Shown piece by piece: positions 1-24,003 of a stretch of DNA of 64,000 bases (position 1 is its first letter; every line of letters begins with the position of its first letter). Made by a program: the position numbers and the translations under genes. The notes under the pieces are model-generated. The model had not been told where the DNA came from, made no database searches, and saw only the letters and a program-made list of their open reading frames with translations. This DNA is from Streptomyces europaeiscabiei (GTDB lineage Bacteria > Actinomycetota > Actinomycetes > Streptomycetales > Streptomycetaceae): assembly GCF_036346855.1 (NCBI RefSeq), contig NZ_CP107841.1, positions 4,468,001 to 4,532,000 on the forward strand. Direction: 5' to 3'.

Positions 1-176
1 ATCGGCTGCACCGTGTTGGCGTCGACGAAGGCATTCACCGCGCTCTCTGGGATGCGGACGTGTCGGCCGACCTTGACGAACTCGATGCGTCGCTCGGCGA
101 TCAGTCGGCGCGGGAAGCGTTCCGTGGTGCCGAGGAGTTCGGCCACCTGCGCCACGGTGAGGTAGCGGTCAGCCAC
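1..176 (-). CDS. xis: Excisionase (Xis), 3' end outside window
   Basis: Small winged-helix DNA-binding protein that would direct excision of the integrated element together with an integrase, probably encoded just left of the window. The frame starts at a GTG (176-174) and reads VADRYLTVAQVAELLG, then a MerR/Xis-like helix-turn-helix and the typical RIEFVKVGRHVRIPESAV wing. About 58 residues are visible before the window edge. The start overlaps the end of repSA by 8 bp, which matches the repSA-xis-int operon order known from pSAM2. Identification is by motif and context. Confidence 0.85.
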   Translation of the reverse strand, partial: MADRYLTVAQVAELLGTTERFPRRLIAERRIEFVKVGRHVRIPESAVNAFVDANTVQP

Positions 177-1515: not shown

Positions 1516-1607
1516 GGCGATTCTCCTTCTGACTGGCTCGGTCAGGAGTGATGGCCCCGGGGCGGCGGATGCTTGGTCGTGTGCGCCGCCCCGGGTGTCG
1601 GGCGCGT

Positions 1608-8212: not shown

Positions 8213-10206
<1,994 letters not shown>

Positions 10207-10225
<19 letters not shown>

Positions 10226-11173: not shown

Positions 11174-11339
11174 GTGGTCATCTTGCCGCCTGTGTTCGAT
11201 GGACGTTCCCACGCCTCTGCACACACCGCAGGGCATCCGGAGGTATCCCCGGGCAACAGCAGCGTGCCCCTCCTGTGCCCGATCGAGCGGGGAACCACGG
11301 GGAACACCGGACGATCACGGTGGGTCGACGTGCTGACGA

Positions 11340-11366
11340 CCCCTGACCATGTTGCCTGGTCAAGGG
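11340..11366 (-). terminator. Relic tRNA-Ser terminator hairpin, copy 1
   Basis: Arms CCCCTGACCA and TGGTCAAGGG (one mismatch), immediately downstream of the tRNA-Ser fragment on its strand. Two other copies with compensating changes lie at 15681-15717 and 22786-22820. Confidence 0.6.
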
Positions 11367-11376
11367 CCGTTCACCT

Positions 11377-11432
11377 GCGGTGGGTGTGGGATTTGAACCC
11401 ACGGTGACATCGCTGCCACGACGGTTTTCAAG
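11377..11432 (-). pseudogene. tRNA-Ser(UGA) 3' fragment, copy 1 (att-site relic)
   Basis: On the minus strand this reads CTTGAAAACCGTC (anticodon TGA and 3' anticodon stem), a long variable arm, T-arm GTGGGTTCAAATCCCAC and acceptor end ACCCACCGC. The 5' half of a tRNA is absent. A 3' half starting at the anticodon loop is what remains beside an element inserted by a tyrosine integrase into a tRNA gene. Confidence 0.85.
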
Positions 11433-11481
11433 ATCGCCGGTGGTTGACTCAGCCAGGCCAGCTAAAGCGACGCAGTGCCGA

Positions 11482-11892
11482 TCAATCCTTAAGGCGACGC
11501 TTCCACCACGGGTCCCAACTCGCCGCGTAGGGATCAGGGAGTGTTCGTGAGACATAACGATCATCCAAGGAAGCAACCGCCGCAAGAAAGTCACGCTTGC
11601 TCCTGCGCCGCATCGAAGCCGCCACATCCTGCAACAGCGTTCGCGCGTGCATGTCCCTCCAGGCCGTCGTCCCGTAGCCGTGGTTCGCTCCCTGGTCCGG
11701 CCACTCGTGTAGAGCCAGAGCCCAAGCCCGGAAGGCACGGGCAACATGCCCTGCCGGCAGCTGATGACGGGCCTCGAACCGAGCGATCTCGTGATGCGTC
11801 GCGGCGCACAGCCCGTCAATAGCCAAGCGACTGCCGCCCAGCACGCGTCGAGGCCGTTCGGCCCTGATCTCGCCCGGGGAACGGCGAGCCAT
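11482..11892 (-). CDS. Hypothetical protein
   Basis: A 136-residue, Arg/Ala-rich, apparently all-helical protein (MARRSPGEIRAERPRRVLGG). It has His/Trp-containing motifs (HEIARFEARHQLPAGHVA; WPDQGANHGYGTTAWRDMHA). No known domain is recognised. ATG at 11892 with GGAAG upstream. It ends 50 bp from the tRNA-Ser relic, which suggests it belonged to the element once integrated there. Confidence 0.5.
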   Translation of the reverse strand: MARRSPGEIRAERPRRVLGGSRLAIDGLCAATHHEIARFEARHQLPAGHVARAFRAWALALHEWPDQGANHGYGTTAWRDMHARTLLQDVAASMRRRSKRDFLAAVASLDDRYVSRTLPDPYAASWDPWWKRRLKD

Positions 11893-12017
11893 GAGAACTT
11901 CCCGTATGACAAAGGACGGAGCACCTCACGGTACCGCGCAATGGCCATCGACCGTCACCGCTGTGACGGCACCGAGTAGACGGCTCTGGAACGCCACCAC
12001 GTGCTCGGGTGAGTGTC

Positions 12018-12136
12018 TAACTGCGTGACAACGCCCACGAACAGCGGCGGACAAGGGCGGACGCCTGCGGACCATCGGCGCAGGTGAGAAGCACAGCAGT
12101 CCACGGTCAGACGCCCGCTCAGTTTGCTTCGGGAGC
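12018..12136. repeat. Dispersed att-like repeat, family A copy 1
   Basis: Begins CTAACTGCGTGACAACGCC and ends near GTTTGCTTCGGGAGCAAAC. Related copies lie at 16319-16450 and 20479-20610. The repeats carry no frame of their own and resemble the non-coding ends of related integrative elements. The 11893-12326 gap otherwise shows nothing. Confidence 0.6.
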
Positions 12137-12326
12137 AAACGGTCTAGGAGCAAAGTGCGGGCGCTCTATCGCCTTCGGTCATGAAGGTCCGGGCGGCGGC
12201 TGTGCCTACCCCACATGACCCGACGAGCCCGCACAGCGAGTCAGACGTCATGCTCCCTCGCCAATGCTTCTCAGTGCCTCGCGCCGTCTGCCATCATCAG
12301 GGAGCCGCCCCTCTAGGAGATGACGA

Positions 12327-13031
12327 ATGTGTGCAGCCGGAACGCCTGGCTCAGCTCACCCCTGGTCTCCTCTTACGTACCTAGGACAGCTGTCCCAGGA
12401 AGCGCAGCATCTGGTCTTCGCCACGGGGACCGAGGTGAGCTACCACCGCGACAACGTCCTATTCCGGGAAGGAGAACCCTCCACCTATCTGCTCTTGCTG
12501 AAGCAGGGGCTGGTGAAGGTGACCGCCGCCTCGGAAACAGGTCAAGTGACGCTGCTCGCCATCCGCGGTCCGGGCGACGTCATCGGTGAGCTCTCGGCGG
12601 CTGACGGAAACCCGCAGCGGTCTGCAACGGTGGTGGCGGCTGCTGACGTACACGCGTGCCTGATAAACCATCAGGACTTCATCCGACTTACCCAGCAGCG
12701 TCCAGAGATCATGGTGGCGATGCTCCATGTTCTCAGTGACAAACTGCGTCAAGCCTCCCGTGCGCGGGTCGAGGTACACACCTACACCGTGCGCATGCGG
12801 CTGGCTCGCGTCCTGGTAGAGCTTGCCCAGGCGTACGGGCAGGAAGGAACAGGCGGCACACGGATCGATCTCTCGCTCACCCAGCCGGAGCTGGCGGCTC
12901 TGGTGTCCGCCTCTCCCGCGTCTATCGCCAGGTGTCTGCGAGAGCTCCGCCAGAGGCGGATACTCGACATCGGCTATCGCCATGTGACGCTGCACGACAC
13001 GAAGGCGTTGGCTGCCATCGCCCGGAGCTGA
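12327..13031 (+). CDS. Crp/Fnr-family transcriptional regulator
   Basis: A 234-residue regulator. A cyclic-nucleotide-binding-type beta-roll (about residues 20-130, with LLLLKQGLVKVTA and GPGDVIGELSAADG) is followed by a long dimer helix and a Crp-type winged helix (about 170-225; LTQPELAALVSASPASIARC). The phosphate-binding region keeps GE and R (PQRSATVVA), so ligand binding is possible but unproven. ATG at 12327 with AGGAGA 6 nt upstream. It stands alone, 370 bp from the next gene, inside the decayed-element region; its targets are unknown. Confidence 0.88.
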   Translation: MCAAGTPGSAHPWSPLTYLGQLSQEAQHLVFATGTEVSYHRDNVLFREGEPSTYLLLLKQGLVKVTAASETGQVTLLAIRGPGDVIGELSAADGNPQRSATVVAAADVHACLINHQDFIRLTQQRPEIMVAMLHVLSDKLRQASRARVEVHTYTVRMRLARVLVELAQAYGQEGTGGTRIDLSLTQPELAALVSASPASIARCLRELRQRRILDIGYRHVTLHDTKALAAIARS

Positions 13032-13405
13032 GGGACCCTGCACCTAGGCGAGTTGCTACGAAAATCTACGTCCCAGGTATGAGCGGTGGTTAGACAGGAG
13101 CAGGCGAAGCCGCGGGCTACCACCCCCGCAGCTTGCCTGCCTGAACGCCGGACAAGGGCTCGGCAAAGAGACTCCTGTGCGACCTGACCAGGTTAGACGC
13201 ACCGCCGACCCCGAGACCATGTCAAATGATGAGGTTCACGACGGTTTTTTGGATCTCGCCTCGATGTCCCTGGGGCTCTAGAAGCGGGCACAATCACCAC
13301 GTAAGGTGATGATCGATCGACGGGTAGTTAAGCGCGTCTCCTACCAAGGCGCTCTGCCGTCGATCATCGGATAGGGCTCGGCAATCGGACTTCGCAGGAG
13401 ATGAT
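13032..13405. other. Intergenic region with structured leader
   Basis: No gene seen. At 13308-13368 there is a stem (GATGATCGA...CGACGG pairing with CCGTCGATCATC) enclosing a second small stem, just upstream of the small membrane gene at 13406. It could be a terminator, a leader structure or a small RNA. Confidence 0.4.
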
Positions 13406-13597
13406 GTGACAACGCATATCTGGATGCTTGTCGTCAGCGGTACGGTAGTGATCACCGCTCTCGCACTCGCAGCCTTCGCGGTATCGAAGATGGAGAAAGG
13501 TTCGCCCGCCCGGGTGGCCATCGTGATCACGGCGCTGGCCGGGTTCCTCGCCGCTATTCCGCCGCTGGTCACCTCCTTCACCGCGCTCCAGGGCTAG
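13406..13597 (+). CDS. Small membrane protein
   Basis: A 63-residue protein with two hydrophobic helices (about 5-25 and 35-55) joined by a short basic loop (SKMEKGSPAR). GTG start with AGGAG 5 nt upstream, a strong initiation site. Its stop is 3 bp before the nucleotidyltransferase-like gene, so they form an operon. Function unknown. A small two-helix protein next to a nucleotidyltransferase fold could be an effector or membrane partner (inference). Confidence 0.6.
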   Translation: MTTHIWMLVVSGTVVITALALAAFAVSKMEKGSPARVAIVITALAGFLAAIPPLVTSFTALQG

Positions 13598-13600
13598 ACC

Positions 13601-14161
13601 ATGGGCAGAGCCGGGCACTGGAACCTCAATCGCTTCGTCCCTCACAGTGGCGAACCGAGCTTCATTGACCGCCAGTGCCCGGTGCTGTCCGAACGCCTGG
13701 AGAGTGAGCCGTTCCAGCGGCTACGCACACTGCAGCTGCCCCGCGAGGACTTCGTCGTCGCGGGCAGCGCCCCGCTGTTCATCCGCGGGCTGAGAAACGA
13801 GATCTCCGATCTCGACATTGTGACGTATGACGTCGCCTGGGAGCGTGCTCGGTCTCTGGCCGAGGCACACAACGCGCCCTACGGAGAGGCGGAATCGGTC
13901 CCCCTTTTCCACGGGCGTATCGAGGTCCTCAACGGATGGTTCCCGCACCTCTTCGGCACCGTTCCAGCTCTCATCACACGTACCGAGGTCATCGGCGGCT
14001 TCAGGTTCCTGACCTTGTCGGACACGGCCCTTTGGAAGCGCGACCTGGACCGCGAGAAGGATCGCGCCGACCTCCTACGCCTGTCCTGTTCCCCACGGCG
14101 CCCACCGCCGCGCCGGCTGACCTGGCTGGGCACGCGACGTCACTTGGGCCACCGTGTATAG
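13601..14161 (+). CDS. Nucleotidyltransferase-like protein
   Basis: A 186-residue protein with the polymerase-beta-type nucleotidyltransferase signature GSAPLFIRG (residues 55-63), followed by D70-x-D72 in NEISDLDIV. These are the residues expected to bind the nucleotide and metal. A third acidic residue may be E116 or D121 in the following strands. The C-terminal 25 residues are Arg/Pro-rich and read like out-of-frame sequence, so a late frameshift is possible. It overlaps the next gene by 8 bp. Stand-alone proteins of this fold often act as toxins, antitoxins or tRNA/protein modifiers; none is proven here. Confidence 0.6.
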   Translation: MGRAGHWNLNRFVPHSGEPSFIDRQCPVLSERLESEPFQRLRTLQLPREDFVVAGSAPLFIRGLRNEISDLDIVTYDVAWERARSLAEAHNAPYGEAESVPLFHGRIEVLNGWFPHLFGTVPALITRTEVIGGFRFLTLSDTALWKRDLDREKDRADLLRLSCSPRRPPPRRLTWLGTRRHLGHRV

Positions 14162-14444
14162 AAGGGGCCCGGAGAACGGTGAAGAGACCACGTCCGAGGC
14201 CTGTAGTCCTACAGCCAGCGAGGCTGCTCAGGCCGAAGCCAACCTGGTCAGGTCTGGGCCGTCCTGGAAGCGGATTGCCGTAGCGGCTGGCGGTATCGTC
14301 ACCGCGGTTAGCACAGCCATCATCACCCTCGTCGCGACTCACAAGTCCGCACATATGGCGAACGCGGCGGCTTACACCCACGGCCTCCTTGACGGGGCCG
14401 AAACCGCGAGGAACGGTTACGACTTCGACGAGGTCCACGACTAG
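14154..14444 (+). CDS. Small single-span membrane protein
   Basis: A 96-residue protein with an acidic N-terminus, one hydrophobic helix (about residues 40-62; IAVAAGGIVTAVSTAIITLV) and a polar C-terminus. The GTG start lies inside the end of the nucleotidyltransferase-like gene, so the three genes 13406-14444 look co-transcribed. A later start is possible. Unknown function. Confidence 0.5.
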   Translation: MYRRGPENGEETTSEACSPTASEAAQAEANLVRSGPSWKRIAVAAGGIVTAVSTAIITLVATHKSAHMANAAAYTHGLLDGAETARNGYDFDEVHD

Positions 14445-14918
14445 GACGAGTTGGCGAACGGCGTGAAGCCTGCCCTTCGGGTGCTAGATCAGTGCGGGGG
14501 CCAAACAGGGGGCCAAAAAGGCCGCAGTCGCAACATGACTGTCCTGGACAGTCGTGGACAGCCGTGGAGGGAAACAGGCAAGTCAGCGGCCCCATACCGA
14601 GGTCCCAAGGCACCTGATCGCGTTCGGGACGAAGAGGTCGTCACCCAAGGTCTCACCCCCACGCTTCCGCCGACGCGGCTTGCTCCGGTCGACGGCATGG
14701 CATCGTGGCTGAGGCCGGTGGGGGTGCAGCGAGGCACACGCGCGCCTGATCGTCGGCGCACCCACCGTCGTGGCTGACTGTCGTCGGCTGAGGTTCGTGC
14801 CACAACCGTGCCAGATCCAGGGGTCAGCCACGGTCAACAGCGGTTGCATGCGGTCGAGTTGCCAGCCACCGCATCAGATATCGAAGCCGCAGGTCAGTAG
14901 CAGGAAACCCCAGCCTCT
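14445..14918. repeat. Att-like repeat region, family B copy 1
   Basis: No gene seen. 14630-14790 (TTCGGGACGAAGAGGTCGTC through GTGGCTGACTGTCGTCGGCT) is repeated at about 16430-16600. GTGCCACAACCGTGCCAGAT at 14797-14816 resembles motifs at 17885 and 21438. These look like element ends next to the tRNA-Arg relic that follows. Confidence 0.55.
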
Positions 14919-14961
14919 CTCCTAAAGCGGGTGTCGCAGGTTCGAATCCTGCCGGGGGCAC
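14919..14961 (+). pseudogene. tRNA-Arg(CCU) 3' fragment, copy 1 (att-site relic)
   Basis: Reads CTCCTAAAGCGGGTG (anticodon CCT), T-arm GCAGGTTCGAATCCTGC and acceptor CGGGGGCA. The 5' half is missing. The matching terminator follows. A second, slightly diverged copy is at 23516-23559. Confidence 0.85.
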
Positions 14962-14966
14962 AGGTA

Positions 14967-15006
14967 AAGGGCCAGCTCAGGAGGGTTTCCTCCCAGGCTG
15001 GCCCTT
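14967..15006 (+). terminator. Terminator of tRNA-Arg relic, copy 1
   Basis: Arms AAGGGCCAGC and GCTGGCCCTT with an inner GAGG/CCTC stem, directly after the tRNA-Arg fragment. The same hairpin follows copy 2. Confidence 0.75.
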
Positions 15007-15034
15007 CGTCGCAGGTCCACAGACAGCCCGACTC

Positions 15035-15102
15035 GCCGGAAGCTTACGGGGCCATGATCACTCACCCCATGGCAGCTCCCGCCCAAAGCCGCTCCACCGA
15101 CC
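15035..15102. repeat. 68-bp dispersed repeat, copy 1
   Basis: Starts CCGGAAGCTTACGGGGCCAT and runs to about CCGACCT; nearly identical to 22358-22426. Non-coding; probably an element-end or target-flank sequence duplicated by repeated integration. Confidence 0.65.
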
Positions 15103-15129
15103 TTGCTGAGTAACCTCACCCAGCGGTCG

Positions 15130-15564
15130 TCAAAGCTCCCAGTCATCCTCGCCACCAGGGCCCACCGTGATCGGGGCTACCCCGTGTCTGGCCAGGTGCC
15201 AGGACACGAATCGTGGATCTGGGCCGATCCAGAGCCCGGCACCGTCTTGAAAGTCGATGACCAAAGCACCGTGCTCGCGGACATCGACCCCCTCTCGGCG
15301 ACGCCTGAATTCAGCCGCCGCCGACACCCCCGTGAGTGTCTGCCCGAATAGGGCCAGAACGGGGGCGAGGCTCACACCCGTGCCGGGGTCGATTTCATGC
15401 CATTCGCCACCGGCATCCCGGAACAGGAACGGCGTCTCCAGCACCAACTCGGCATCCAACCGGTAGCCCTCATCGGGGTCGAGAGCGCCAAGGCTCAGCC
15501 GCACTTGGTGATCAAAAGCTGTGCGCTCCACTTGAGCGCCGATCAAGGCGCTAGGGACCTTCAC
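15130..15564 (-). CDS. DUF6188-like hypothetical protein
   Basis: A 144-residue, mainly beta protein starting VKVPSALIGAQVERTAFDHQ. The pattern of an N-terminal FDxQ..L strand, a central PVLALFGQ turn and a C-terminal LWIGPDPRFVSWHL resembles the DUF6188 family of small Streptomyces proteins. The GTG at 15564 is preferred because GGGAG lies 6 nt upstream; a longer frame enters the att-like repeats. It is enclosed between tRNA-Arg and tRNA-Ser relics. No function is known. Confidence 0.6.
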   Translation of the reverse strand: MKVPSALIGAQVERTAFDHQVRLSLGALDPDEGYRLDAELVLETPFLFRDAGGEWHEIDPGTGVSLAPVLALFGQTLTGVSAAAEFRRRREGVDVREHGALVIDFQDGAGLWIGPDPRFVSWHLARHGVAPITVGPGGEDDWEL

Positions 15565-15680
15565 CCTGTCTCCCTTCCGCACCGTGTGACAGCTCGACAG
15601 CGTAACTGCGTGCCCCTCCCGTGTCCGTTCGGTCGGGAAACGGCGGGGAGTCACGGTCGCTGGCGAACAACGCTCACGAG

Positions 15681-15717
15681 AACGGCTCCTGACCGATTTA
15701 CCTGGTCAGGAGCCGTT
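15681..15717 (-). terminator. Relic tRNA-Ser terminator hairpin, copy 2
   Basis: Perfect 14-bp arms AACGGCTCCTGACC and GGTCAGGAGCCGTT. Relative to copy 3 a base pair is exchanged on both arms (CTCC/GGAG against CCCC/GGGG). Confidence 0.75.
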
Positions 15718-15722
15718 CATCT

Positions 15723-15779
15723 GCGGTGGGTGTGGGATTTTGAACCCACGGTGACATTGCTGCCATGACGGTTTTCAAG
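15723..15779 (-). pseudogene. tRNA-Ser(UGA) 3' fragment, copy 2
   Basis: Same 3' half as copy 1, with one extra base in the T-loop (GATTTTGAACCC on the plus strand) and two substitutions in the variable arm. It could not fold into a normal tRNA. Confidence 0.85.
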
Positions 15780-15918
15780 ATCGCGTAAGACTTGACTGGC
15801 CCCTTGAGGCTTCACCGCCCGCGTTGCTGCCTAGCTGACGCAGATCGCGTACGCAGAGGGTCCAGGAATCGCGTGTCCCCCTACGCTTCTATATCCAGCG
15901 ACCAACGGGGGCAGCAGC

Positions 15919-16089
15919 GTGGGTCTCTTCGTCGGCATACTCGTGATCACCATCGGACTTCCAGTGCTTGGCATCCTGAGCCGCAAGGTCAGTAACGGCC
16001 AGCTGTGGCAGACCGGGATGGCCATTTGGTTCGTGGGCTCCCCGGCAGTGCTCGGTCTTGGCGGTTGGCTGATCTACCGGAGTTTCTGA
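15919..16089 (+). CDS. Very small membrane protein
   Basis: A 56-residue protein starting VGLFVGILVITIGLPVLGIL with two hydrophobic helices (about 1-20 and 33-53). GTG start preceded by a GGGGG run 6-10 nt upstream. It lies alone between a tRNA-Ser relic and the repeat region. Coding is supported by clean membrane topology rather than homology, so confidence is limited. Confidence 0.45.
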   Translation: MGLFVGILVITIGLPVLGILSRKVSNGQLWQTGMAIWFVGSPAVLGLGGWLIYRSF

Positions 16090-16642
16090 ACCAGGGCGAA
16101 CCCGGTGGACCTCCTGTGAGGGCGGGGTGCGGCATCCCCGTACCGCAACCCCAGCAACCGCCCTCAGCCGGCAGCACCCCTCCAGGGCCTCGTAGCGACC
16201 GGTATGGCTGTGGCTGACCGATCTCGCTAGAGCTACGGATCGAGAGGTGGGACAGGAGGCGCGTGAAGAGCGATGATCGCGACCACCGAACACACTGGAA
16301 GCCGCACAGGTTGCGTGTCTAACTGCGTGACAACGCCAGCGAACAACCGCGGACGAGCGCGGACGTCAGCGGACCATCGGCGCAGGTGAGCAGCACACCA
16401 GCCCAAGGCCAGACGCCCACCCAAGTTGCTTCGGGACGACGAAGTCATCGCCCAACGGCTCACCGTCGCACTTCCGTCGGCGCAACTTACTCTGGTCGAC
16501 GACATGGCAGCGTGGCTGAGGCCAGTGGGGGTACAGCGAGACACACGCGCGCCTGATCGGTCGACGCACCCGCCATCGTGGCTGACTGTCGTCGGCTGAC
16601 GCTCAGACCCCAAGACCGAGCTTCCACCCAGGTGGGTGTTGG
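16090..16642. repeat. Att-like repeat region with family A copy 2 and family B copy 2
   Basis: No gene seen. Family A begins at 16319 (CTAACTGCGTGACAACGCC). Family B follows at about 16430-16600, here directly joined to A, suggesting the two were once one element end. Confidence 0.6.
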
Positions 16643-17164
16643 CTAGGTTTCACGCTCCGCCTGGCGCGCTGCTTCTATGAACAGGTCGATGGAGGCCAAG
16701 TAGGCGTTCATGGCGCGTCGGAAAGCCTCGGCCTCGCGTATGTCTTCCTCTACGGAGATGAGGCGGATGTACGCCTCGCCTGAAGCCCTGTGGACTGCCT
16801 TCGCTGCCGCTATGGGCTCAGGGTGACACTCCAGAGACACAACAGCTAGGGCGCGCAGGAACGGTTCGTAGGAGTCACGTAGTTGATCTCGAAGCCCAGT
16901 AAGGGAAGCAAATCGTGCCTCTTCATTGTCTACCTTCAGGAACTTGGGGATCCTGAGGTACAGGACCCCCATCTGGTTCGCTTGCTGAATGAAGTCCAAC
17001 TGCGTGGCTCTACGTGCTTCGCGCACCCGCGCGACGTGCGCAGCTTCGGCAGCGGCATGCGCCTGAATGCGAGCAGCTTGCGCATTGCCCCTACTTGTCA
17101 CCCAACTGGCGACAACTGCTGTAGCAGCCGTCAGCAGGGCCACCCACAAGGCACTATTGTCCAT
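16643..17164 (-). CDS. Membrane-anchored coiled-coil protein, unknown function
   Basis: A 173-residue protein (MDNSALWVALLTAATAVVAS) with one N-terminal membrane helix (about 5-22). It continues as a long, charged, helical region (HAAAEAAHVARVREARR; EEDIREAEAFRRAMNAYLA). Such single-span coiled-coil proteins are common on Streptomyces mobile elements. The ATG at 17164 is chosen as the start nearest the membrane helix; an ATG at 17185 is an alternative, and neither has a strong ribosome site. Confidence 0.55.
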   Translation of the reverse strand: MDNSALWVALLTAATAVVASWVTSRGNAQAARIQAHAAAEAAHVARVREARRATQLDFIQQANQMGVLYLRIPKFLKVDNEEARFASLTGLRDQLRDSYEPFLRALAVVSLECHPEPIAAAKAVHRASGEAYIRLISVEEDIREAEAFRRAMNAYLASIDLFIEAARQAERET

Positions 17165-17480
17165 GGCCCACAGTGTGAGTGACATCGGCCAACTTGCCCA
17201 GTGTGCACCGATATCAGATCTTCGAACAACGACGCGCAGACATAGCCGCTGGATCGACGGCTTCCAGCCCACTCGGCGGACTAGCAAGCGGCGAGCCCGT
17301 CTCAGTTTCCGTCTCATTCAGCGCCGTTCACGGCCGTTCAGACGAGACCGGAGGCGGTAGACGCTCAGGCGATCGAACCCCGATGAACGCAGGTGAACGC
17401 CCCCGAAGGACACCCACCACCCCACCACCACAGTTGGAAAGCGTGTTGGGTGGTGTGCACCGAGGAGGAAGCAGGGTCGG

Positions 17481-17837
17481 ATGTCAGACGTCGATGAGAG
17501 TGTGTCGGCCATGGAGACACCCATTGCCCCTGAGACCGGGGATGAGGAGCACGCCGTCATCGCGCACTTCCGGCTCGCCAATGGCCGTTTCGGCAAGGCC
17601 GACCAGCGGGAGCTGGTCTACGAGGCCGAGCAGGCGATGGCAGCCGCGGTCGAGGAAGCCGATGTTGGGGAGGTCGACGGCAACGAGTTCGGTGCCGGCG
17701 AGGCAGTCGTGTACGCCTATGGACCCGATGCCGATGCTCTGTTCAAGGTCATGGAGCCGATTCTGCGCGGTCTACCGTTCCGGCCGGCGCACGTCGTTTT
17801 CAGGCGAGGCGACGGTGAGTCCCGTCTGGACCTGTAG
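17481..17837 (+). CDS. Hypothetical small acidic protein
   Basis: A 118-residue protein with an acidic N-terminus (MSDVDESVSAMETPIAPETG), then an alpha/beta-looking domain (IAHFRLANGRFGKADQRELV and LFKVMEPILRGLPFRPAHVV). ATG preceded by GGAGGAA about 10 nt upstream. No named family is recognised. It sits between the repeats and the tRNA-Gly relic, so it is probable cargo of a decayed element. Confidence 0.55.
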   Translation: MSDVDESVSAMETPIAPETGDEEHAVIAHFRLANGRFGKADQRELVYEAEQAMAAAVEEADVGEVDGNEFGAGEAVVYAYGPDADALFKVMEPILRGLPFRPAHVVFRRGDGESRLDL

Positions 17838-18010
17838 GCCCGGCCCAGCGGCCGCCGGGCTGAACCGGGCGAGGTCGAGACGAGGCGCACCACAACCGCA
17901 CCAGATCTAGCGGGGAGCAGCGGGGAATCACGGGGAGCAGAGGCACTGCGGCCAACGCCAACACCCAGTCGCTTGCCCAGGTCAGCGCTCAAGTAGGCCC
18001 TAAATGACCG

Positions 18011-18058
18011 CAGCTTCCCAAGCTGAGAGCGCGAGTTCGATTCTCGTCACCCGCTCCA
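18011..18058 (+). pseudogene. tRNA-Gly(CCC) 3' fragment, copy 1 (att-site relic)
   Basis: CAGCTTCCCAAGCTG (anticodon arm with CCC), then T-arm GCGAGTTCGATTCTCGT and acceptor CACCCGCTCCA. The D-arm and 5' acceptor strand are absent. It keeps an encoded CCA-like end and its own terminator. Confidence 0.85.
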
Positions 18059-18063
18059 TGCGA

Positions 18064-18090
18064 AACCCCCAGGTCATTGACCCGGGGGTT
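18064..18090 (+). terminator. Terminator of tRNA-Gly relic
   Basis: AACCCCC pairs with GGGGGTT around GGTCATTGACC, followed by CTTTGTTGT, right after the tRNA fragment. Confidence 0.65.
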
Positions 18091-18417
18091 CTTTGTTGTC
18101 TAGACCGGTGCGCGGGTGGCGCACCCCAACCGCACCATAAGGACTCGGCTAGGTCCCGGCGGCCTCCTCCTCGTGGTGCGCGGAGTCGCCCGTGTGGTTC
18201 TTCGCACGCTCGGCGCGCACCATCTCGTCGAGGCCGGCCGCCAAGTCACGCTGCCGCTCGTCGTCGGAGTGCTGATAGATCAGCGCGGCCTTCTCGGAGC
18301 ACTGTCAGTGGCCGAGGTTGGGGTGGAGCGTTCAGGTCCTGGCGCCGGGCCGCACCGACTTCACCCGCTGTGACCTTCTGATCCGTAGCTCTGGAGGGAT
18401 GCTCATGCGTATTGAGG

Positions 18418-18804
18418 TCAGGATGGATGCGTAAGGCCGTACGCGTTAAGAAATGTAAAGCCAAGGAAAGCGAGCGAGGTGAAGGCCGCACCTCCATGCC
18501 AGATGGCTTCGGGGAGAGTAGCTCCATCAGCCCGATCGGCCATGCCGTATGCCACGCCACCCAGCAGTGCAGCAAGCATGACAGCTACTAGAGGAAGAGG
18601 CTGCGGGGTGAGCATGCTACTGAAAGCCAGCGTGGTCATTCCGGTGAAAGAAATTCCAGCTCGCTTAATGGAGCCGGGCAAAGTGCCACCGTCGTTTCGA
18701 TGCAGGAGTCCTGCGCCAACAGCAAGAAGCAATCCTGTAAGCGCGGAAGTGATGATAATCCAAGGATTCAGGGAGTTGGGGATTGAGGTAGCGAAATGAC
18801 CCAC
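18418..18804 (-). CDS. Small four-helix membrane protein
   Basis: A 128-residue protein starting VGHFATSIPNSLNPWIIITS with four hydrophobic helices and two similar halves (HRNDGGTLPGSIKRAG and ADRADGATLPEAIWHG). These suggest an internal duplication of a two-helix unit. GTG at 18804. Codon use is less GC-rich than in neighbouring chromosomal genes, as in the next gene (19001-20302), so both may have arrived together. Function unknown. Confidence 0.6.
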   Translation of the reverse strand: MGHFATSIPNSLNPWIIITSALTGLLLAVGAGLLHRNDGGTLPGSIKRAGISFTGMTTLAFSSMLTPQPLPLVAVMLAALLGGVAYGMADRADGATLPEAIWHGGAAFTSLAFLGFTFLNAYGLTHPS

Positions 18805-19000
18805 GTTAATTTCCTTCCGCCTGCTCCATACCCGGTTGGGCACTCGGAAGGGGATCACATCACCTCGCACCGACCCTAGCCTGCACACTTCTCCGTTTCT
18901 CCACGTACCTGCTGGTCAGACGGCTAGCATGACTTGCACCGAGTCAGCCGAGTCAGCCGACTCGGTGCCAGCCCGAGGACGTACCTGGTAGGAGGCGAAG

Positions 19001-20302
19001 GTGTCCGACGAGCAAAGTGATCACGGTGATGAGTTCACCACGGCCTTCCTCGAACTCCATCGACGCGCTGGAAAACCGCGTGCAAGTCAAATCCTAGAGC
19101 GCGCAGCGAATATGCGACTCATGGACCGAAGAATTGCCGGGTACGGAAAAGCGCCAGCCGATAGCACCGTCGATGACTGGATTCGGAATAATCGAATTCC
19201 TCGTAGCGAGACCAAGCTTCTCCTGGTAGTAGCGGTTTTGGCGCATATGGCCGAAGAACGCGAGGGGTCGCGTACCTTACCAGCTCACCTGACTGCTCCA
19301 GAAGCTTGGCGTCGCCGCCTGACACAGAAACGGCAAGCCGCCCCTTCTGTTAGTTCAACGAACTACCCCAGCATGACGACAGAGGAATCCAGCGAGTGGG
19401 CCGGAAAAGATTTTTCTACAAAAAAGTTGCGCTTCACCGTTTTAATCACTGCCGGTGCAGCAGTAATCGCCACCGCGACGGCAATTGCTCTACTGGTGGC
19501 CAATGGGGAGACTAGAGACAAAGACGAAGGGTCACGCATCGAAGGAAAGTCGACTAGTATCGAATACACAGACAGCAGGCAGGCGCCGGTCAAAGTGGTA
19601 GCAGTGACCCCACGGCTCGCCGATGCCAATAGTTGGACTTACAAGAAAGCCCTCACTCTTTCCAATGATGCCCTATCCAAAATCGGAGATCCGGGTGGCT
19701 TTGGGAATAGCCTTTCCCGCTACGATAAATGGTTTCTCGATCACGACGCAGTTCCAGTGGGCGGCAGGGCAGACCAAATTATCCTGGAAGGCAACTCAAG
19801 AACCCCTGTTCGCGTCATTGATATTGAAGTCAACAAGCAGTGCCACCCACCCCTCGCGGGTTCGCTATTCGATAACCCTGGGGCCGGGGCCGACGACTCA
19901 ACCACTCTCAGTGTTGACTTGGACAGGCCCATGCAGGTTGAAGAATCAAGTCCGCAAGCCGAGCCAGGACCGTACTTCGATCGCCACACGATCTCGCTCA
20001 AGTATGGCGAGCAACACGTTCTGGTACTACAGGCCGAGACTTCTAAGTTCTATTGCGAATATACACTGGGGCTCAAGATTTCACGCAATGGCGAAACATT
20101 AACCCAAGTCGTCAAGAACAATGGAGTTCCGTTTAGAGTGTCTGCCGAGATTGGGGATCACGAAGATCACAATCCATATAAAGGATATGCGCGCGTCTAC
20201 ATTGCCGGCATTCCATCCTCTTACGCCTGCCCCTCCAGCAAAGGCAAGCTAATCCGAGTGGATCCCCTGACCTACACTATAGAAACAAAGAAATGCCCAT
20301 GA
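19001..20302 (+). CDS. HTH-like, membrane-anchored protein with extracytoplasmic domain; low GC
   Basis: A 433-residue protein. The N-terminal about 110 residues (EFTTAFLELHRRAGKPRASQ; TVDDWIRNNRIPRS) resemble the helical DNA-binding-like domain of Streptomyces HTH/TM proteins. One membrane helix follows at about 146-168 (VLITAGAAVIATATAIALLV), then about 260 residues of probably extracytoplasmic, beta-rich sequence with paired cysteines (QCHPPL, FYCEY, YACPSS, KKCP). GTG start with GGAGG upstream. The DNA is visibly more AT-rich than its surroundings, with many A/T-ending codons, indicating transfer. The overall layout parallels the protein at 28189-29583. It may sense an outside signal; no ligand is known. 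Confidence 0.6.
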   Translation: MSDEQSDHGDEFTTAFLELHRRAGKPRASQILERAANMRLMDRRIAGYGKAPADSTVDDWIRNNRIPRSETKLLLVVAVLAHMAEEREGSRTLPAHLTAPEAWRRRLTQKRQAAPSVSSTNYPSMTTEESSEWAGKDFSTKKLRFTVLITAGAAVIATATAIALLVANGETRDKDEGSRIEGKSTSIEYTDSRQAPVKVVAVTPRLADANSWTYKKALTLSNDALSKIGDPGGFGNSLSRYDKWFLDHDAVPVGGRADQIILEGNSRTPVRVIDIEVNKQCHPPLAGSLFDNPGAGADDSTTLSVDLDRPMQVEESSPQAEPGPYFDRHTISLKYGEQHVLVLQAETSKFYCEYTLGLKISRNGETLTQVVKNNGVPFRVSAEIGDHEDHNPYKGYARVYIAGIPSSYACPSSKGKLIRVDPLTYTIETKKCP

Positions 20303-20611
20303 GGGCAGCCGCGCGCGTGGTCGGTCGCCGTCGTGGCTGGCTTTCGTCGGCTCTCCACCGCCGGACGGGGCTGCGGGCCTACAACGCGTCGGCCGACGCC
20401 GACAGAATGATCGAGGGACAGCCGTCAGCCTCCCTGCACCGATGCTTCCCGCAAAGCAAGAAAATTGAGGGTGAGTGTGTAACTGCGTGACAACGCCGAC
20501 GAACAACAGCGGACGCCAGCGAACGTCATCAGACCGTCAGTGCAGCTCAGAACCACACCAGACCAAGGCAGCGCCCCCACCAAGGTTGCTTCGGGACGAA
20601 GCGGTCGTCGA
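20303..20611. repeat. Family A att-like repeat, copy 3
   Basis: No gene seen. GTAACTGCGTGACAACGCC starts at about 20479, and the module ends near GGTTGCTTCGGGACGAAGCG (about 20610). A partial family-B tail (GTGGCTGGCTTTCGTCGGCT) lies at 20332. Confidence 0.55.
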
Positions 20612-21220
20612 CTAACCGCACGAATCGCAAATGCCTGTCGAAGGCAGTTGGACGAAGCAGCGCTCACAAACCCGGGCAGGCTTTTCAGTGCGCTCGCGCC
20701 GACGCTCGACCGCGGCTTGAAGTCTGGGGGCGAGGGCCGGCACACCACCGCCAGGCGGCATGGTCGCCCCAAAGTGGCGGTAGCAAGCCAGGCGGGCGTC
20801 GGCAGCGTGATGCTCACGTTCCAGCTCGTCATCTACCGGCGTCTCTCCGGCGACCGCCAGAACTTCCTTGTAGCCACTGCCTACCTTGCCGTCGTCTGTA
20901 TGGACCACCAGGGCCGTCAGTGGTGGGTCGCCGCGACGGTGGGCTTCACGCACCACCCGGCCCAAGATCGGACCGATCCAGTTGTGCAGGAGAGTCTTGG
21001 TCCGGATGCCAGTCCTGCTCTGAATCTCCTCCGCCAACTCCTTGTAAGTGATCACTGCGTGGTAGGTCTGCGCTACGCCTACGAGGATCAAGTACGCCTC
21101 TGAGCTCCAGGCTTCGCGTGCCTCCTGGCCCGTCGGCTTATCGGTGCCGGCCTCAGACTCAGAATCCCCCTGCTTCATCCCCACCCCGTCTTGCTCTTGA
21201 TCGTTGGCACTCTCTTGCAT
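20612..21220 (-). CDS. Winged-helix-like protein with C-terminal zinc ribbon, unknown function
   Basis: A 202-residue protein. After an acidic leader, residues about 40-125 (AYLILVGVAQTYHAVITYKE, then LAEEIQSRTGIRTKTLLHNW) look like a helical, winged-helix fold with a PPLTALVVHTDDGKVGSGY turn. The C-terminus holds CERCFVQLPSTGICDSCG, a CxxC-x10-CxxC zinc ribbon. Similar proteins occur scattered in actinobacterial accessory regions. A nucleic-acid-binding role is plausible but inferred. Confidence 0.6.
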   Translation of the reverse strand: MQESANDQEQDGVGMKQGDSESEAGTDKPTGQEAREAWSSEAYLILVGVAQTYHAVITYKELAEEIQSRTGIRTKTLLHNWIGPILGRVVREAHRRGDPPLTALVVHTDDGKVGSGYKEVLAVAGETPVDDELEREHHAADARLACYRHFGATMPPGGGVPALAPRLQAAVERRRERTEKPARVCERCFVQLPSTGICDSCG

Positions 21221-21567
21221 CCTCCCCTACGGGAGGACGACAGCGCCATGGCTCTGTGCGAGCTCACCGACGTACGCCAACCGGTACACAGAGCAGCGTC
21301 GGCAGCGAGCGCCCTGATCCCTGCGATACAGCAGCGAAGTACAGCAACCACGACGACCGTAGCTGGCCGCCAGCACTCTTCAATGGCCAGCTGAACAGCT
21401 ATCGCGACCTCAACGACCTCTGCGCCGAGACTTCGGGACGTTCGTGCCAGATCCGTGCCAGGTCGTGCGGGGAACTACGGGGAATGGCGGGGAACAACGA
21501 GCCATCCCGTCACCTCTCACAGTAGCTTCGCCGCAGGTCACCGCAGCAACTACCGCCAGAGAACACG

Positions 21568-21606
21568 AGCTTCCCAGGCTGAGAGCGCGAACTTGATTCG
21601 CGTCAC
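21568..21606 (+). pseudogene. Decayed tRNA-Gly 3' fragment, copy 2
   Basis: AGCTTCCCAGGCTGAGAGCG followed by AACTTGATTCGCGTCAC matches the tRNA-Gly(CCC) relic at 18011, with several substitutions and loss of the acceptor end. No terminator follows. Confidence 0.7.
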
Positions 21607-21620
21607 GCAGGGCCTGGCGG

Positions 21621-22121
21621 TCAGCGCCGTCCACGATCTCTGAACAGCCGGGCCGCCCAGCCTCCGATGATGATGACCCCGGCGAGGATCGCACTCCGAA
21701 GCCAGCTGTCTGGCGGATCCTTCAGCTGTCCAACAAGCCATAGGACCACCGTGAAGATCGACCAGTGGCTGATCCATAGCAAGCCCTCAAGCCGCACGGG
21801 CAGTGCATCGCTCTCGACGGGAGAGACAGGAGCCGACCGGAACCCCCCTTTGCGCTCGTAGTGAGCCTGGCGTCGGCGCTCAAAGCGACACACGAGCCAG
21901 GCGAACAGCCCGGCGCCCAGCCCCACCAGCACTGCCTGCAGCATGCGCCCCGGATCGTCGAAAGCGGACAGGGCCGCGGCAAACAGCAGTCCCTGGAAGA
22001 CGCCATGGACTACTCCCGTACCTACCGGATGCCGGGCCAAGTACACCTGCACTCGGGGCGGCGGTTTGGTCCCGCCGAAGCGCTCGTCAAAACGCAGGAA
22101 CGCCCGCCGCAATCTCTCCAC
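21621..22121 (-). CDS. Membrane protein, unknown function
   Basis: A 166-residue protein with a basic, amphipathic N-terminus (MERLRRAFLRFDERFGG). About four hydrophobic helices follow, in two pairs (about 38-78 and 110-158), separated by a polar loop (RFERRRQAHYERKGGFRSAP). No family is recognised. Its stop lies 15 bp from the tRNA-Gly relic. It is one of several small membrane proteins in this decayed region. Confidence 0.55.
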   Translation of the reverse strand: MERLRRAFLRFDERFGGTKPPPRVQVYLARHPVGTGVVHGVFQGLLFAAALSAFDDPGRMLQAVLVGLGAGLFAWLVCRFERRRQAHYERKGGFRSAPVSPVESDALPVRLEGLLWISHWSIFTVVLWLVGQLKDPPDSWLRSAILAGVIIIGGWAARLFRDRGRR

Positions 22122-22357
22122 CGGTCAATTCCCCTCTCCCCGACACTGGTTGATGCGCATCTTTCCCTACGGGCGCTCCCATTGTCCTTGTGACGGGATG
22201 CCGCCCTCTCGCAGACACGGCCCTGGCAGCCGACTCCGGAACATGCGGCAAGCGACCAGCTTCAGTGTCAGCGGCGGCTGAACCTGGGTTCTGGCTCACT
22301 TTGGTCGGTTGAAATCTGACCCGGGTGTCTTCGGTTCGGTCGTTTCAGGGACCTCTC

Positions 22358-22426
22358 CCGGAAGCTTACGGGGCCATGATCACTCGCCCCATGGCAGCTC
22401 CCGCCCAAAGCCGCTCCGCCGACCTA
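22358..22426. repeat. 68-bp dispersed repeat, copy 2
   Basis: Partner of 15035-15102 with two substitutions in about 68 bp. It lies beside the small membrane gene 22424-22675. Confidence 0.65.
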
Positions 22427-22675
22427 GTCGGACACCGTGTCCGCCGTGCGTTCCTGAGCGACAGGAAACATCAGCCGGGCAGCGAAGACGATCACGCCCA
22501 GGGATCCCCATGCCAGGGCATGACGTAGCCATCTCATGCCGCCCTCCCAGGCTTGCGGAGGACCGAAGACCAACCAGACCACAACAATGGCGCCGACCAG
22601 CACGCTTGCCACGCCAGCTGTGCGACGTAATCCAGGACTCATGCGCCCAGGATCTCCCGTGGTCTCCACCCTCAC
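22424..22675 (-). CDS. Small two-helix membrane protein
   Basis: An 83-residue protein with two hydrophobic segments (about 20-38 and 50-68; VASVLVGAIVVVWLVFGPPQ). GTG at 22675 or ATG 11 codons later (MSPGLRRTAG) could be the start. Its 3' end overlaps the edge of a dispersed repeat. Function unknown. Confidence 0.45.
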   Translation of the reverse strand: MRVETTGDPGRMSPGLRRTAGVASVLVGAIVVVWLVFGPPQAWEGGMRWLRHALAWGSLGVIVFAARLMFPVAQERTADTVSD

Positions 22676-22785
22676 AATCGAAAAAGCGGCGAGTGCCCTA
22701 CAGTTCGGGTCGCGTGCCCCCTCTGTGCCCGCCAGCTCAGGGAACCACGGGGAAAATCGGTCGCCGACGGGCAGCCATCAGCCTG

Positions 22786-22820
22786 ACGGCCCCTGACCGT
22801 ATCGCCTGGTCAGGGGCCGT
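22786..22820 (-). terminator. Relic tRNA-Ser terminator hairpin, copy 3
   Basis: Perfect 13-bp arms ACGGCCCCTGACC and GGTCAGGGGCCGT, downstream of tRNA-Ser relic 3. Confidence 0.75.
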
Positions 22821-22826
22821 TCGCCT

Positions 22827-22880
22827 GCGGTGGGTGTGGGATTTGAACCCACGGTGACATCGCTGCCACGACGGTTTCAA
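22827..22880 (-). pseudogene. tRNA-Ser(UGA) 3' fragment, copy 3
   Basis: Same 3' half as copies 1 and 2, with one A lost from the anticodon loop (CTTGAAACC). The TGA of its anticodon doubles as the stop codon of the gene at 22877-23251. Confidence 0.85.
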
Positions 22881-23251
22881 GACTGTTGGCCTGTTGCATC
22901 GTCGCCCAGCCCAGGAGGCAGGTGAGCCATCACCAGGCCGATGGCGTCCTCAGCCGTTGCCGCCTCTCCGAGGAGGGTCCCGTAACCGGACGCGTAGACG
23001 CTGTATGGCGGCTCACCCAGCACGATGAACGGCAGATCATCAGCCGGAGGCTCGTACCACGGGGGAGCATCACGGATGAACTTGAGTGTGCCGTGGGTGT
23101 GAAAGGGAAAGAGCCCGCGCAGCACAGGCTCGGCGTATGCGGCAGCCGCGATGGGTGGCAACGTGTCGTTGAACGAGCCTCGGGTCCCTGGTCGACGCTC
23201 CAGCAGCCATGTCCACGCAGTCTCAACGTCAGGGGCCTCGGACATGGTCAT
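22877..23251 (-). CDS. DUF6193-like protein, 3' end fused to a tRNA-Ser relic
   Basis: A 124-residue protein with the DUF6193 pattern: an ETAWTWLLE helix, LRGLFPFHTHGTLKFIRD, then a C-terminal SVYASGYGTLLGEAATAEDA stretch and a LVMAHLPPGLG end. DUF6193 proteins are small Streptomyces proteins sometimes linked to natural-product clusters; no activity is established. The last residues (GQQS) and the stop TGA (22879-22877) come from the tRNA-Ser fragment, so integration probably set the present 3' end. ATG at 23251 or at codon 3 (MSEAPDVE). Confidence 0.7.
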   Translation of the reverse strand: MTMSEAPDVETAWTWLLERRPGTRGSFNDTLPPIAAAAYAEPVLRGLFPFHTHGTLKFIRDAPPWYEPPADDLPFIVLGEPPYSVYASGYGTLLGEAATAEDAIGLVMAHLPPGLGDDATGQQS

Positions 23252-23515
23252 ACGATCCTACAACCGACAGACGGCAGGCAAGATCTCTGTGTCGATACAG
23301 CAGGGAAGTACAGCAACCCTCCCCGTCCTTCTGCAGGCAAGCACAGCCGCCCAAGGACCGGGATGGCCCCAGAGCTCAATCTGTATAGAGCTACAGATCA
23401 GAAGGCTTCTGACATCCACGGCTGACATCAACGACGCCGGACAGCGGCGTACACCAGCAACTCTGTCCGGCCGTCGCACCAGCCGACGGCTGCAGCCGGA
23501 TCAGGCTCGGATCGA

Positions 23516-23559
23516 ACTCCTGAAGCGGGTGTCGCAGGTTCGAGTCCTGCCGGGGGCAC
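23516..23559 (+). pseudogene. tRNA-Arg(CCU) 3' fragment, copy 2
   Basis: ACTCCTGAAGCGGGTGTCGC, then T-arm GCAGGTTCGAGTCCTGC and acceptor CGGGGGCAC. It differs from copy 1 at two or three positions, including one in the T-loop. The 5' half is missing. Confidence 0.85.
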
Positions 23560-23564
23560 AACAT

Positions 23565-23607
23565 AAAGGGCCAGCTCAGGAGGGGTTTCCTCTCAGGCTG
23601 GCCCTTC
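23565..23607 (+). terminator. Terminator of tRNA-Arg relic, copy 2
   Basis: AAAGGGCCAGC pairs with GCTGGCCCTT, with an inner GAGG/CCTC stem, as after copy 1. Confidence 0.75.
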
Positions 23608-23610
23608 ATC

Positions 23611-24003
23611 GTGTTCGAGGCCGTGCTACACGCGGGCCACTCATGCCACGCGGATGCCCCATCGCTCCTGGCCGGTGTCCTCTCTCCCGCCCTCACTGAT
23701 CCCTTCACCTCAGCCGCAGACAGCGCAGCAAGCCGCGCCTCACCGAACCTCACCGATCTCACCGCGGGCGGCACCATCCGCTTCCGGATCAAAGGCACGG
23801 ACGAGACCTGCGAGGTCAAGGTCAGGCGGGTCACCGAGTACCCCGACTTCGAAGCACTGCTCGATGGCGAGGGACCGAGCAACGTCAACCCGACCGCCAC
23901 CCGCGAACTGCGGCTCGCCAACATCCGCGCCATCTACCCGTCCGAGAAGGAAGCCCTGGGCGCCCTCGCCATCGAGATCGCACTGCTCGACTCGGCCCCC
24001 TGA
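23611..24003 (+). pseudogene. ASCH-domain protein, N-terminally truncated
   Basis: The frame from 23611 (130 residues) has a good ASCH-type C-terminal half from ASPNLTDLTAGGTIRFRI, through VTEYPDFEALLDGEG, to IRAIYPSEKEALGALAIEI. The about 40 residues before it (HAGHSCHADAPSLLAG) do not look like the expected first strand and helix of an ASCH domain, and they begin only 4 bp after the tRNA-Arg terminator. The element junction therefore probably removed the native start. ASCH domains bind RNA or nucleotides; this copy may be non-functional or reuse a new start. Confidence 0.6.

What the first reader, a model, noticed from the sequence alone, without database searches (positions are those of the whole stretch)
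11377..23559. Interleaved array of seven 3' tRNA fragments from three tRNA species
Within 12 kb there are three tRNA-Ser(UGA) 3' halves on the minus strand, two tRNA-Arg(CCU) and two tRNA-Gly(CCC) 3' halves on the plus strand, and no intact tRNA gene. Order: Ser, Arg, Ser, Gly, Gly, Ser, Arg. Tyrosine-integrase elements leave such 3' halves at one end. The opposite orientations and mixed order mean that elements with different tRNA targets were nested or rearranged inside each other. This looks like a long-term integration hotspot with its fossil record preserved.
Basis: partly seen in the sequence, partly recalled or inferred. Interest (0 to 1): 0.75.

Follow-up and report, generated by a model that had tools for sequence, protein, structure and literature searches.

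The report
Stacked ends of Streptomyces mobile elements
A stretch of a Streptomyces-type chromosome keeps a row of leftover docking ends from several mobile DNA elements, all facing the same way, and comparison with other genomes suggests that such elements fuse end to end and trade cargo genes.

Summary
The seven 3' tRNA halves are real. The intact tRNA-Arg(CCU) gene lies 1.3 kb left of the window and carries an AICE (actinomycete integrative and conjugative element) with integrase, RepSA and FtsK/TraB-like genes. Arg fragment 1 (43 of 43 core bases identical to the intact gene) bounds a 16.2-kb element; Arg fragment 2 bounds an older, decayed accretion. Intact tRNA-Ser(UGA) and tRNA-Gly(CCC) lie 0.68 and 1.2 Mb away.

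Comparison points elsewhere. AICEs here share one backbone polarity: integrase at the left end, repeat 'arms' then att core at the right end. The tRNA reads with the arms in Arg, Gly, Thr and Pro types but against them in Ser(UGA) and Tyr types. In 53 loci all 43 class-A-type cores lie opposite to the nearest Ser(UGA) core, and all 4 Tyr cores lie the same way. The array is best read as a one-directional stack of AICE right ends, built by same-site accretion (Arg, Gly) plus fusion of differently targeted AICEs in backbone register (Ser). One cargo gene sits beside Ser, Tyr and Gly(UCC) cores in different genomes. Accretion and module exchange are published; I did not find the polarity rule in the papers searched.

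The parts
169..1590 (-). RepSA (pSAM2-type replication initiator) reading frame of the proximal Arg-type AICE; its integrase lies just outside at window -1172..-36, beside the intact tRNA-Arg(CCU) at -1346..-1273
   Evidence: Pfam PF20199 6e-54 on 169-729; frame open over 169-1590, start codon not settled; integrase PF00589 3e-18
2301..2942 (-). DUF2637 protein of the AICE
   Evidence: Pfam PF10935
3032..4510 (-). FtsK/SpoIIIE (TraB-like) DNA translocase of the AICE
   Evidence: Pfam PF01580 9e-34
5310..6098 (-). GntR/UTRA regulator of the AICE
   Evidence: Pfam PF00392, PF07702
6125..6613 (+). NUDIX protein of the AICE
   Evidence: Pfam PF00293
11262..11336 (+). Repeat arms, Ser-type right end 1
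   Evidence: 3-copy repeat; same arms follow intact tRNA-Ser(UGA) in other genomes
11377..11436 (-). Ser(UGA) 3' half 1 (att core)
   Evidence: 95% over 60 aligned positions to host tRNA-Ser(UGA)
14653..14791 (+). Right-end repeat D5 before Arg core 1
   Evidence: 86% to 16460-16613 (longer match); also near the Arg(CCG) att fragment in the same genome
14914..14961 (+). Arg(CCU) 3' half 1: right att core of the proximal 16.2-kb AICE
   Evidence: 47 of 48 aligned nt to intact tRNA-Arg(CCU); 43 of 43 for 14919-14961
14919..15782 (+). Arg1-Ser2 cassette (contains the DUF6188 gene)
   Evidence: 93% over 864 bp to G108, ends at both cores
15036..15103 (+). D7 module, truncated copy
15130..15654 (-). 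DUF6188 cargo gene
   Evidence: Pfam PF19686 2e-21; beside Ser, Tyr and Gly(UCC) cores elsewhere
15608..15649 (+). Repeat arms, Ser-type right end 2
15723..15783 (-). Ser(UGA) 3' half 2 (att core)
   Evidence: 90% over 61 aligned positions
16308..16613 (+). Right-end repeats D2+D5 (D2 precedes a Pro-type core in locus L102)
17885..18000 (+). Gly-type right-end arms
18011..18058 (+). Gly(CCC) 3' half 1 (att core)
   Evidence: 48 of 48 nt
18149..18346 (-). Integrase C-terminal remnant: left end of a decayed Gly-type element
   Evidence: tblastn hit and ALIYQH stretch with an internal stop; 18011-18304 is 84% to a Gly-type AICE left end in L177
20468..20619 (+). Right-end repeat D2, third copy
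21455..21484 (+). Repeat arms, Gly-type right end 2
21560..21606 (+). Gly(CCC) 3' half 2, decayed
   Evidence: 85% over 47 nt
22358..22425 (+). D7 module, truncated copy
   Evidence: 97% to 15036-15103
22712..22763 (+). Repeat arms, Ser-type right end 3
22827..22887 (-). Ser(UGA) 3' half 3 (att core)
   Evidence: 94% over 62 aligned positions
22877..23251 (-). DUF6193 cargo gene ending in Ser core 3
   Evidence: ORF; Pfam PF19692 2e-21
23517..23701 (+). Arg(CCU) 3' half 2 plus terminator and the altered last codons of an integrase: left-end-like remnant of an older Arg-type element
   Evidence: 90% over 185 bp to tRNA-Arg..int end (-1315..-1133); core 41 of 43

Best explanation
The locus is a composite AICE accretion at tRNA-Arg(CCU). 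AICEs have one backbone polarity: integrase at the left end, and cargo, repeat arms and att core at the right end. In class A (Arg, Gly, Thr, Pro) the tRNA 3' half reads with the arms and the intact tRNA sits on the int side. In class B (Ser-UGA, Tyr) it reads against them and the intact tRNA sits beyond the arms. The array is a one-directional stack of such right ends. Same-type repeats (Arg0/Arg1/Arg2, Gly1/Gly2) arose by site-specific accretion and decay. Ser ends entered when differently targeted AICEs fused in backbone register, most likely by homologous recombination through shared right-end modules; the fused elements then lost int, rep and tra of one partner. The proximal AICE has the main gene set and may still excise as a 16.2-kb circle (Arg0 x Arg1). 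Shown: fragments, terminator hairpins, int remnants, classes by int position for eight tRNA types, one backbone direction, the same cargo beside different cores. Inferred: the fusion step, its recombination route, the order of events and present mobility.
For: Intact tRNA-Arg(CCU) + integrase + RepSA + FtsK. The same Ser arms follow intact tRNA-Ser(UGA) in other genomes, with int at the far end in L128, L172 and L175. Class A by int position: Arg(CCU), Arg(ACG), Gly(CCC) L177 and L199, Thr L204, Pro L129, Gly(UCC) L276; class B Tyr L131. Over 53 loci (24 with other tRNA types, 22 with class-A types), 43 of 43 class-A-type cores lie opposite to the nearest Ser core, 38 of 38 without the window, and 4 of 4 Tyr cores the same way; 33 of the 43 are of types whose int position I saw. 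Right-end modules face the backbone direction in 63 of 65 cases, 54 of 56 without the window that defined them. Of 40 loci taken by rank, 14 were informative, all opposite. The DUF6188 cargo lies next to Ser (L247, L250), Tyr (L248) and Gly(UCC) (L249) cores. Gly1 is followed by a Gly-type left end.
Against: No fusion intermediate with two complete AICEs of different classes was found. Homology at the proposed recombination points is short (modules of about 40-170 bp). L208 has D2 and D7 in the opposite direction, and L130 has a full-length tRNA-Trp-like gene on the Ser strand. The Arg1-Ser2 cassette ends at both core edges, which integrase action at those cores would also explain. Loci may share ancestry: only 21 of 39 Ser-fragment right flanks stayed unclustered. 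Class membership of Arg(CCG), Arg(UCU), Ser(GGA), Val and Ile (10 of the 43) was not seen independently of orientation, and for Thr and Pro class and orientation come from the same single locus.
Confidence: 0.68

Rival explanations
1. Random nesting: elements with different tRNA targets inserted into one another's cargo, or inversions reshuffled the locus.
For: Different tRNA types are interleaved; Gly1-Gly2 lies inside Arg1-Arg2.
Against: It predicts mixed orientations; 43 of 43 class-A-type cores are opposite and 4 of 4 Tyr cores same, and right-end modules share one direction in 54 of 56 cases outside the window.
Confidence: 0.08
2. Cross-specific site recombination: a Ser-type integrase recombined its attP with an Arg or Gly att core through shared anticodon-arm sequence, so integrases themselves shuffle the cassettes.
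For: Homology between the window and G108 starts at the Arg core edge and ends at the Ser core edge; published AICEs sit in probable tRNA remnants (PMC3218068, passages).
Against: Recombination through tRNA-core homology should place both cores in the same tRNA orientation; the opposite is seen. It was the only pair with both ends at cores among 3843 HSPs, each pair counted both ways.
Confidence: 0.14
3. The Ser 3' half plus terminator is kept as a functional part, for example a terminator or insulator facing the att end, rather than a recombination relic.
For: Fixed orientation; a cargo ORF runs into a core (22877-23251 ends in Ser core 3); six of seven fragments are followed by a strong hairpin.
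Against: The cores come with the arms of Ser-type AICEs, at least one core here is clearly decayed, and Tyr, Gly and Arg cores occur in the same way.
Confidence: 0.1

Closest known systems
AICE accretion at tRNA-Arg in a Streptomyces population (Choufa et al. 2022, PMC9513070; passages read)
   Same: Several AICEs or defective AICEs and a remnant stacked at one tRNA-Arg, flanked by direct repeats; module exchange and change of integration specificity proposed.
   Different: There the stacked elements share one target and identical repeats; here right ends of Ser- and Gly-targeted elements are interleaved. The word 'orientation' does not occur in its main text.
Tandem AICEs of Frankia and S. 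avermitilis (Ghinet et al. 2011, PMC3218068; passages read)
   Same: att-tra-rep-int-att layout, tandem insertion in tRNA-Arg, extra att sites giving two circle sizes, probable tRNA remnants as targets.
   Different: No heterologous tRNA cores in one element in the passages read; 'orientation' absent from its main text.
CIMEs of ICESt1-type elements in Streptococcus thermophilus (recalled; the underlying paper appears in the reference list of PMC3218068)
   Same: att-bounded segments without int or transfer genes, as Arg1-Arg2 and Gly1-Gly2 here.
   Different: As recalled, CIMEs share the ICE's own att type; Ser ends here are of another type than the site and have no Ser tRNA beside them.
Integron gene cassettes (recalled, analogy only)
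   Same: Small cargo genes in a directional row, each next to a recombination site; one cargo found beside different sites.
   Different: Sites are tRNA 3' halves of several types; I saw no single integrase that reads them all and did not search for IntI or attC.

Membership tests
AICE (pSAM2-like) | Tyrosine integrase beside a tRNA att site | tested here: met
   Integrase at -1172..-36 next to intact tRNA-Arg(CCU)
AICE (pSAM2-like) | RepSA-type replication initiator | tested here: met
   Pfam RepSA; frame open 169-1590; start codon not settled
AICE (pSAM2-like) | FtsK/TraB translocase | tested here: met
   3032-4510, PF01580
AICE (pSAM2-like) | Excision and transfer | not testable with these tools
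   Needs attP PCR and mating
Same-site accretion array | Direct repeats of one att type in tandem | tested here: met
   Arg0, Arg1, Arg2 and Gly1, Gly2; int remnants at Gly1 and Arg2
Same-site accretion array | All elements share one target specificity | tested here: not met
   Three Ser(UGA) and two Gly(CCC) cores within an Arg(CCU) site
CIME | att-bounded segment lacking int and transfer genes | tested here: met
   Arg1-Arg2 (8.6 kb): no int, rep or tra Pfam hit among the ORFs scanned there; one int remnant
CIME | Mobilised in cis | not testable with these tools
   Needs excision assay
Integron cassette array | IntI integrase and attC sites | not tested
   No dedicated search was made

The most novel reading that the evidence does not exclude
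The right end of AICEs is a directional cassette platform used across the genus: small cargo gene + arms + tRNA core units are stacked in one direction and exchanged between elements of different target specificity, so that AICEs form one recombining network in which att cores and cargo are swapped like integron cassettes.
Probability: 0.28. Interest if true: 0.72.

Novelty: new variant of a known kind. Interest (0 to 1): 0.52.

Why it matters
It replaces 'nested and rearranged' by a simple rule that predicts the strand of a foreign tRNA fragment inside an AICE from its tRNA type. If it holds, tRNA fragments become directional markers of how conjugative elements fuse, switch target and carry cargo between Streptomyces species, a route by which specificity and cargo could be traded without nested insertion.

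Tried and rejected
Rejected: chance matches (0 of 500 resamplings reach 49 bits). Short extra cores are weak on their own: Pro(CGG) 14621-14641 (21 of 21, 32.6 bits) and Ser(GGA) 17429-17451 (29.7 bits) are reached in 11 and 58 of 500 resamplings; only the neighbouring modules (D2 before a Pro core in L102; H before a Ser(GGA) core in L135) support them. Doubted: D7 as an ordinary randomly inserted repeat (15 of 16 in backbone direction; about 310 bp with a sharp right edge); its nature is unsolved. The variable loop of the Ser core (AGCGAT type against GCGA in the host) does not separate element-borne from native copies across species. RepSA first looked truncated (ORF 169-729); the frame is open to 1590. 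Rfam gave one hit above its gathering score, a Streptomyces sRNA at 47235-47457.

Empty-site test, partial: 20 relatives with intact tRNA-Arg(CCU) were fetched, about 3 kb upstream and 16-17 kb downstream. 10 of 20 (L226, L227, L229, L235, L239-L243, L245) show the tRNA alone, with no second core, scanned module or integrase hit; 5 of 20 (L231, L232, L234, L236, L237) show integrase matches but no second core; 5 of 20 (L228, L230, L233, L238, L244) show further Arg cores. None of the 20 shows a Ser or Gly core. So the array is not ancestral, but upstream regions differ so much that a base-exact empty site was not reconstructed.

12 of the 53 loci were picked by hand before the 40 taken by rank; in the ranked draw I passed over four hits, two without arms (G216, G127) and two further hits in genomes already drawn (G170:3924943, G108:5795534), although second hits of G067 and G218 were kept. 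Searches scored 8 and 2 candidates a genome.
Full report
OBSERVATION. The seven fragments are all there and are far above chance (none of 500 resampled 13-kb stretches gives a hit of 49 bits; the seven give 49.7-74). The window is G000:C1:4468001-4532000 of a 10.95-Mb genome. It is taken to be Streptomyces from a Streptomyces sRNA hit and because 30 of 31 plasmid records matching window 11000-19000 are Streptomyces; the genome itself is unnamed. The window holds no intact tRNA, but tRNA-Arg(CCU) is intact 1.3 kb to its left, with a 378-aa integrase directly behind it. The intact Ser(UGA) and Gly(CCC) genes are 0.68 and 1.2 Mb away. Matches start at tRNA positions 27-32 (position 20 in the decayed Gly2), that is around the anticodon loop, and six of seven fragments (not Gly2) are followed at once by a strong hairpin, as expected of att cores with a tRNA terminator.

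WHAT SURROUNDS IT. From the tRNA rightwards come integrase, a RepSA frame, DUF2637, FtsK/TraB-like, GntR, NUDIX and a histidine-kinase-like ATPase gene: an AICE. Its right end is Arg1 (14914-14961), whose 43 bases from tRNA position 32 on equal the intact gene, giving an element of about 16.2 kb. From Arg1 to Arg2 (8.6 kb) the ORFs scanned are small cargo genes, two with Pfam domains (DUF6188, DUF6193) and the rest without. Arg2 and the following bases match the tRNA, terminator and last codons of the proximal integrase at 90% over 185 bp, with an altered reading frame end: an older Arg-type left end. Gly1 is likewise followed by an integrase C-terminal remnant, and that stretch matches the left end of a Gly-type AICE in another genome at 84%. 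Gly1 to Gly2 is thus read as a decayed 3.6-kb Gly-type element. Completeness falls from the tRNA outwards.

SER CORES. Each of the three has on its 3' side a hairpin and a repeat-arm block (11262-11336, 15608-15649, 22712-22763). In other genomes the same arms follow an INTACT tRNA-Ser(UGA), and in L128, L172 and L175 the integrase lies at the far end, beside the Ser att fragment in L128 and L175; in L172 no such fragment was in view. So Ser-type AICEs carry their tRNA at the arm end. In this genome the Ser arms were found only in the array: a 201-base query (40 of 41 candidates scored) gave the three copies and the intact gene, the latter without arms. By eye the Ser fragments also carry another variable loop than the host gene, so they were probably imported.

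THE POLARITY RULE. Integrase position gives two classes. Class A (tRNA on the int side): Arg(CCU), Arg(ACG), Gly(CCC), Gly(UCC), Thr, Pro. Class B (tRNA beyond the arms): Ser(UGA), Tyr. If elements are fused in backbone register, class A and class B tRNA cores must lie on opposite strands. In 53 loci holding a Ser(UGA) core (window, 12 chosen by hand, 40 by rank with four hits passed over), 24 hold other tRNA cores. All 43 cores of class A or presumed class A, intact genes included, are opposite to the nearest Ser core (38 of 38 without the window), 33 of them of types whose int position was seen, and 4 of 4 Tyr cores are the same way. One full-length tRNA-Trp-like gene (L130), class unknown, lies on the Ser strand. 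Of the 40 ranked loci, 14 were informative and all fit. Other right-end modules also face one way; without the window that defined them: D2 10 of 11, D5 8 of 8, H 11 of 11, Gly arms 12 of 12, D7 13 of 14; both exceptions are in L208. Sequences to the right of the core stayed unclustered for 21 of 39 Ser fragments and fell into small or mixed clusters for the rest, so the pattern is not one inherited locus, though the loci are not fully independent.

CARGO MOVES BETWEEN TYPES. The DUF6188 gene next to Ser2 matched in 23 of 392 genomes at E 0.001, with matches over 300 bp in 8 counting this one. Among fetched loci it lies beside a Ser core (L247, L250), a Tyr gene (L248) and a Gly(UCC) core (L249); L251 and L253 showed no core nearby, and L252 only intact Arg(ACG) and Ser(GCU) with integrase pieces. 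In L275 it sits in a 2.6-kb segment between an intact Tyr gene and a Tyr fragment, in L276 in a 4.3-kb Gly(UCC) segment with an interrupted integrase. The block from the Arg1 core edge to the Ser2 core edge is 93% identical over 864 bp in G108 and stops at both cores, the only such pair among 3843 HSPs.

MECHANISM. The data fit same-site accretion for the Arg and Gly repeats, and fusion of differently targeted AICEs in backbone register for the Ser ends, followed by loss of redundant genes. Random nesting predicts mixed strands; recombination through tRNA-core homology predicts equal strands; neither is seen. The fusion step is inferred. The precise cassette ends leave room for integrase action as well.

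RELATION TO KNOWN SYSTEMS. Accretion of AICEs at a tRNA-Arg, remnants, and module exchange are published (PMC9513070, passages); tandem AICEs with alternative circles and probable tRNA remnants as targets too (PMC3218068, passages). Neither main text uses the word 'orientation'. Searches (listings only; two returned nothing) showed no account of heterologous tRNA cores stacked in one direction; most subscription papers are not in that library, so this is a limited statement.

VERDICT. A real and informative locus: a composite, partly decayed AICE accretion. New variant of a known kind.

Noticed in passing
G000:C1:5635375-5694824 (L272-L274, L050): The same genome has an array of Gly(CCC) cores, 4 three-prime halves and 2 partial ones plus the intact gene, over about 60 kb, all on one strand, with one Cys-like fragment on the other strand.
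   Followed up: partly
window 15036-15103 and 22358-22425: D7: truncated copies of a conserved non-coding module of about 310 bp found in 163 of 246 genomes, with a sharp right edge, an imperfect inverted-repeat layout (by eye), and AICE backbone direction in 15 of 16 cases. Nature unknown.
   Followed up: partly
window 8167-10246: Transposase gene (rve/HTH_32, 640 aa) between two 40-bp direct repeats (95%) inside the AICE; a 96% copy of part of this stretch lies in the Arg(ACG) AICE region of the same genome (L061).
   Followed up: no
window 25174-28008: Nitrate-sensing-domain histidine-kinase-like gene right of the array lies just upstream of tRNA-Arg(CCU), inverted, in one of 20 relatives (L244), suggesting an inversion or displacement at this site.
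   Followed up: no
window 10249-10666: About 400-bp module with an internal palindrome (10493-10646) that recurs at 70-93% in many AICE loci.
   Followed up: no
window 12134-12157, 14621-14641, 16436-16459, 20600-20619, 17429-17451: D2 repeats end in Pro(CGG)-like (by eye, except 14621-14641) and the H repeat in Ser(GGA)-like anticodon-arm stubs, so the array may hold further truncated cores; the matches alone are not above chance.
   Followed up: partly
window 47235-47457: Streptomyces sRNA scr4677 (Rfam RF02673, 72 bits).
   Followed up: no
window 46652-47178: Tandem pair of about 260 bp, 88% identical.
   Followed up: no
L275:8725-11387: A 2.6-kb segment between an intact tRNA-Tyr and a Tyr 3' fragment carrying the DUF6188 gene, perhaps a minimal passenger element.
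   Followed up: no
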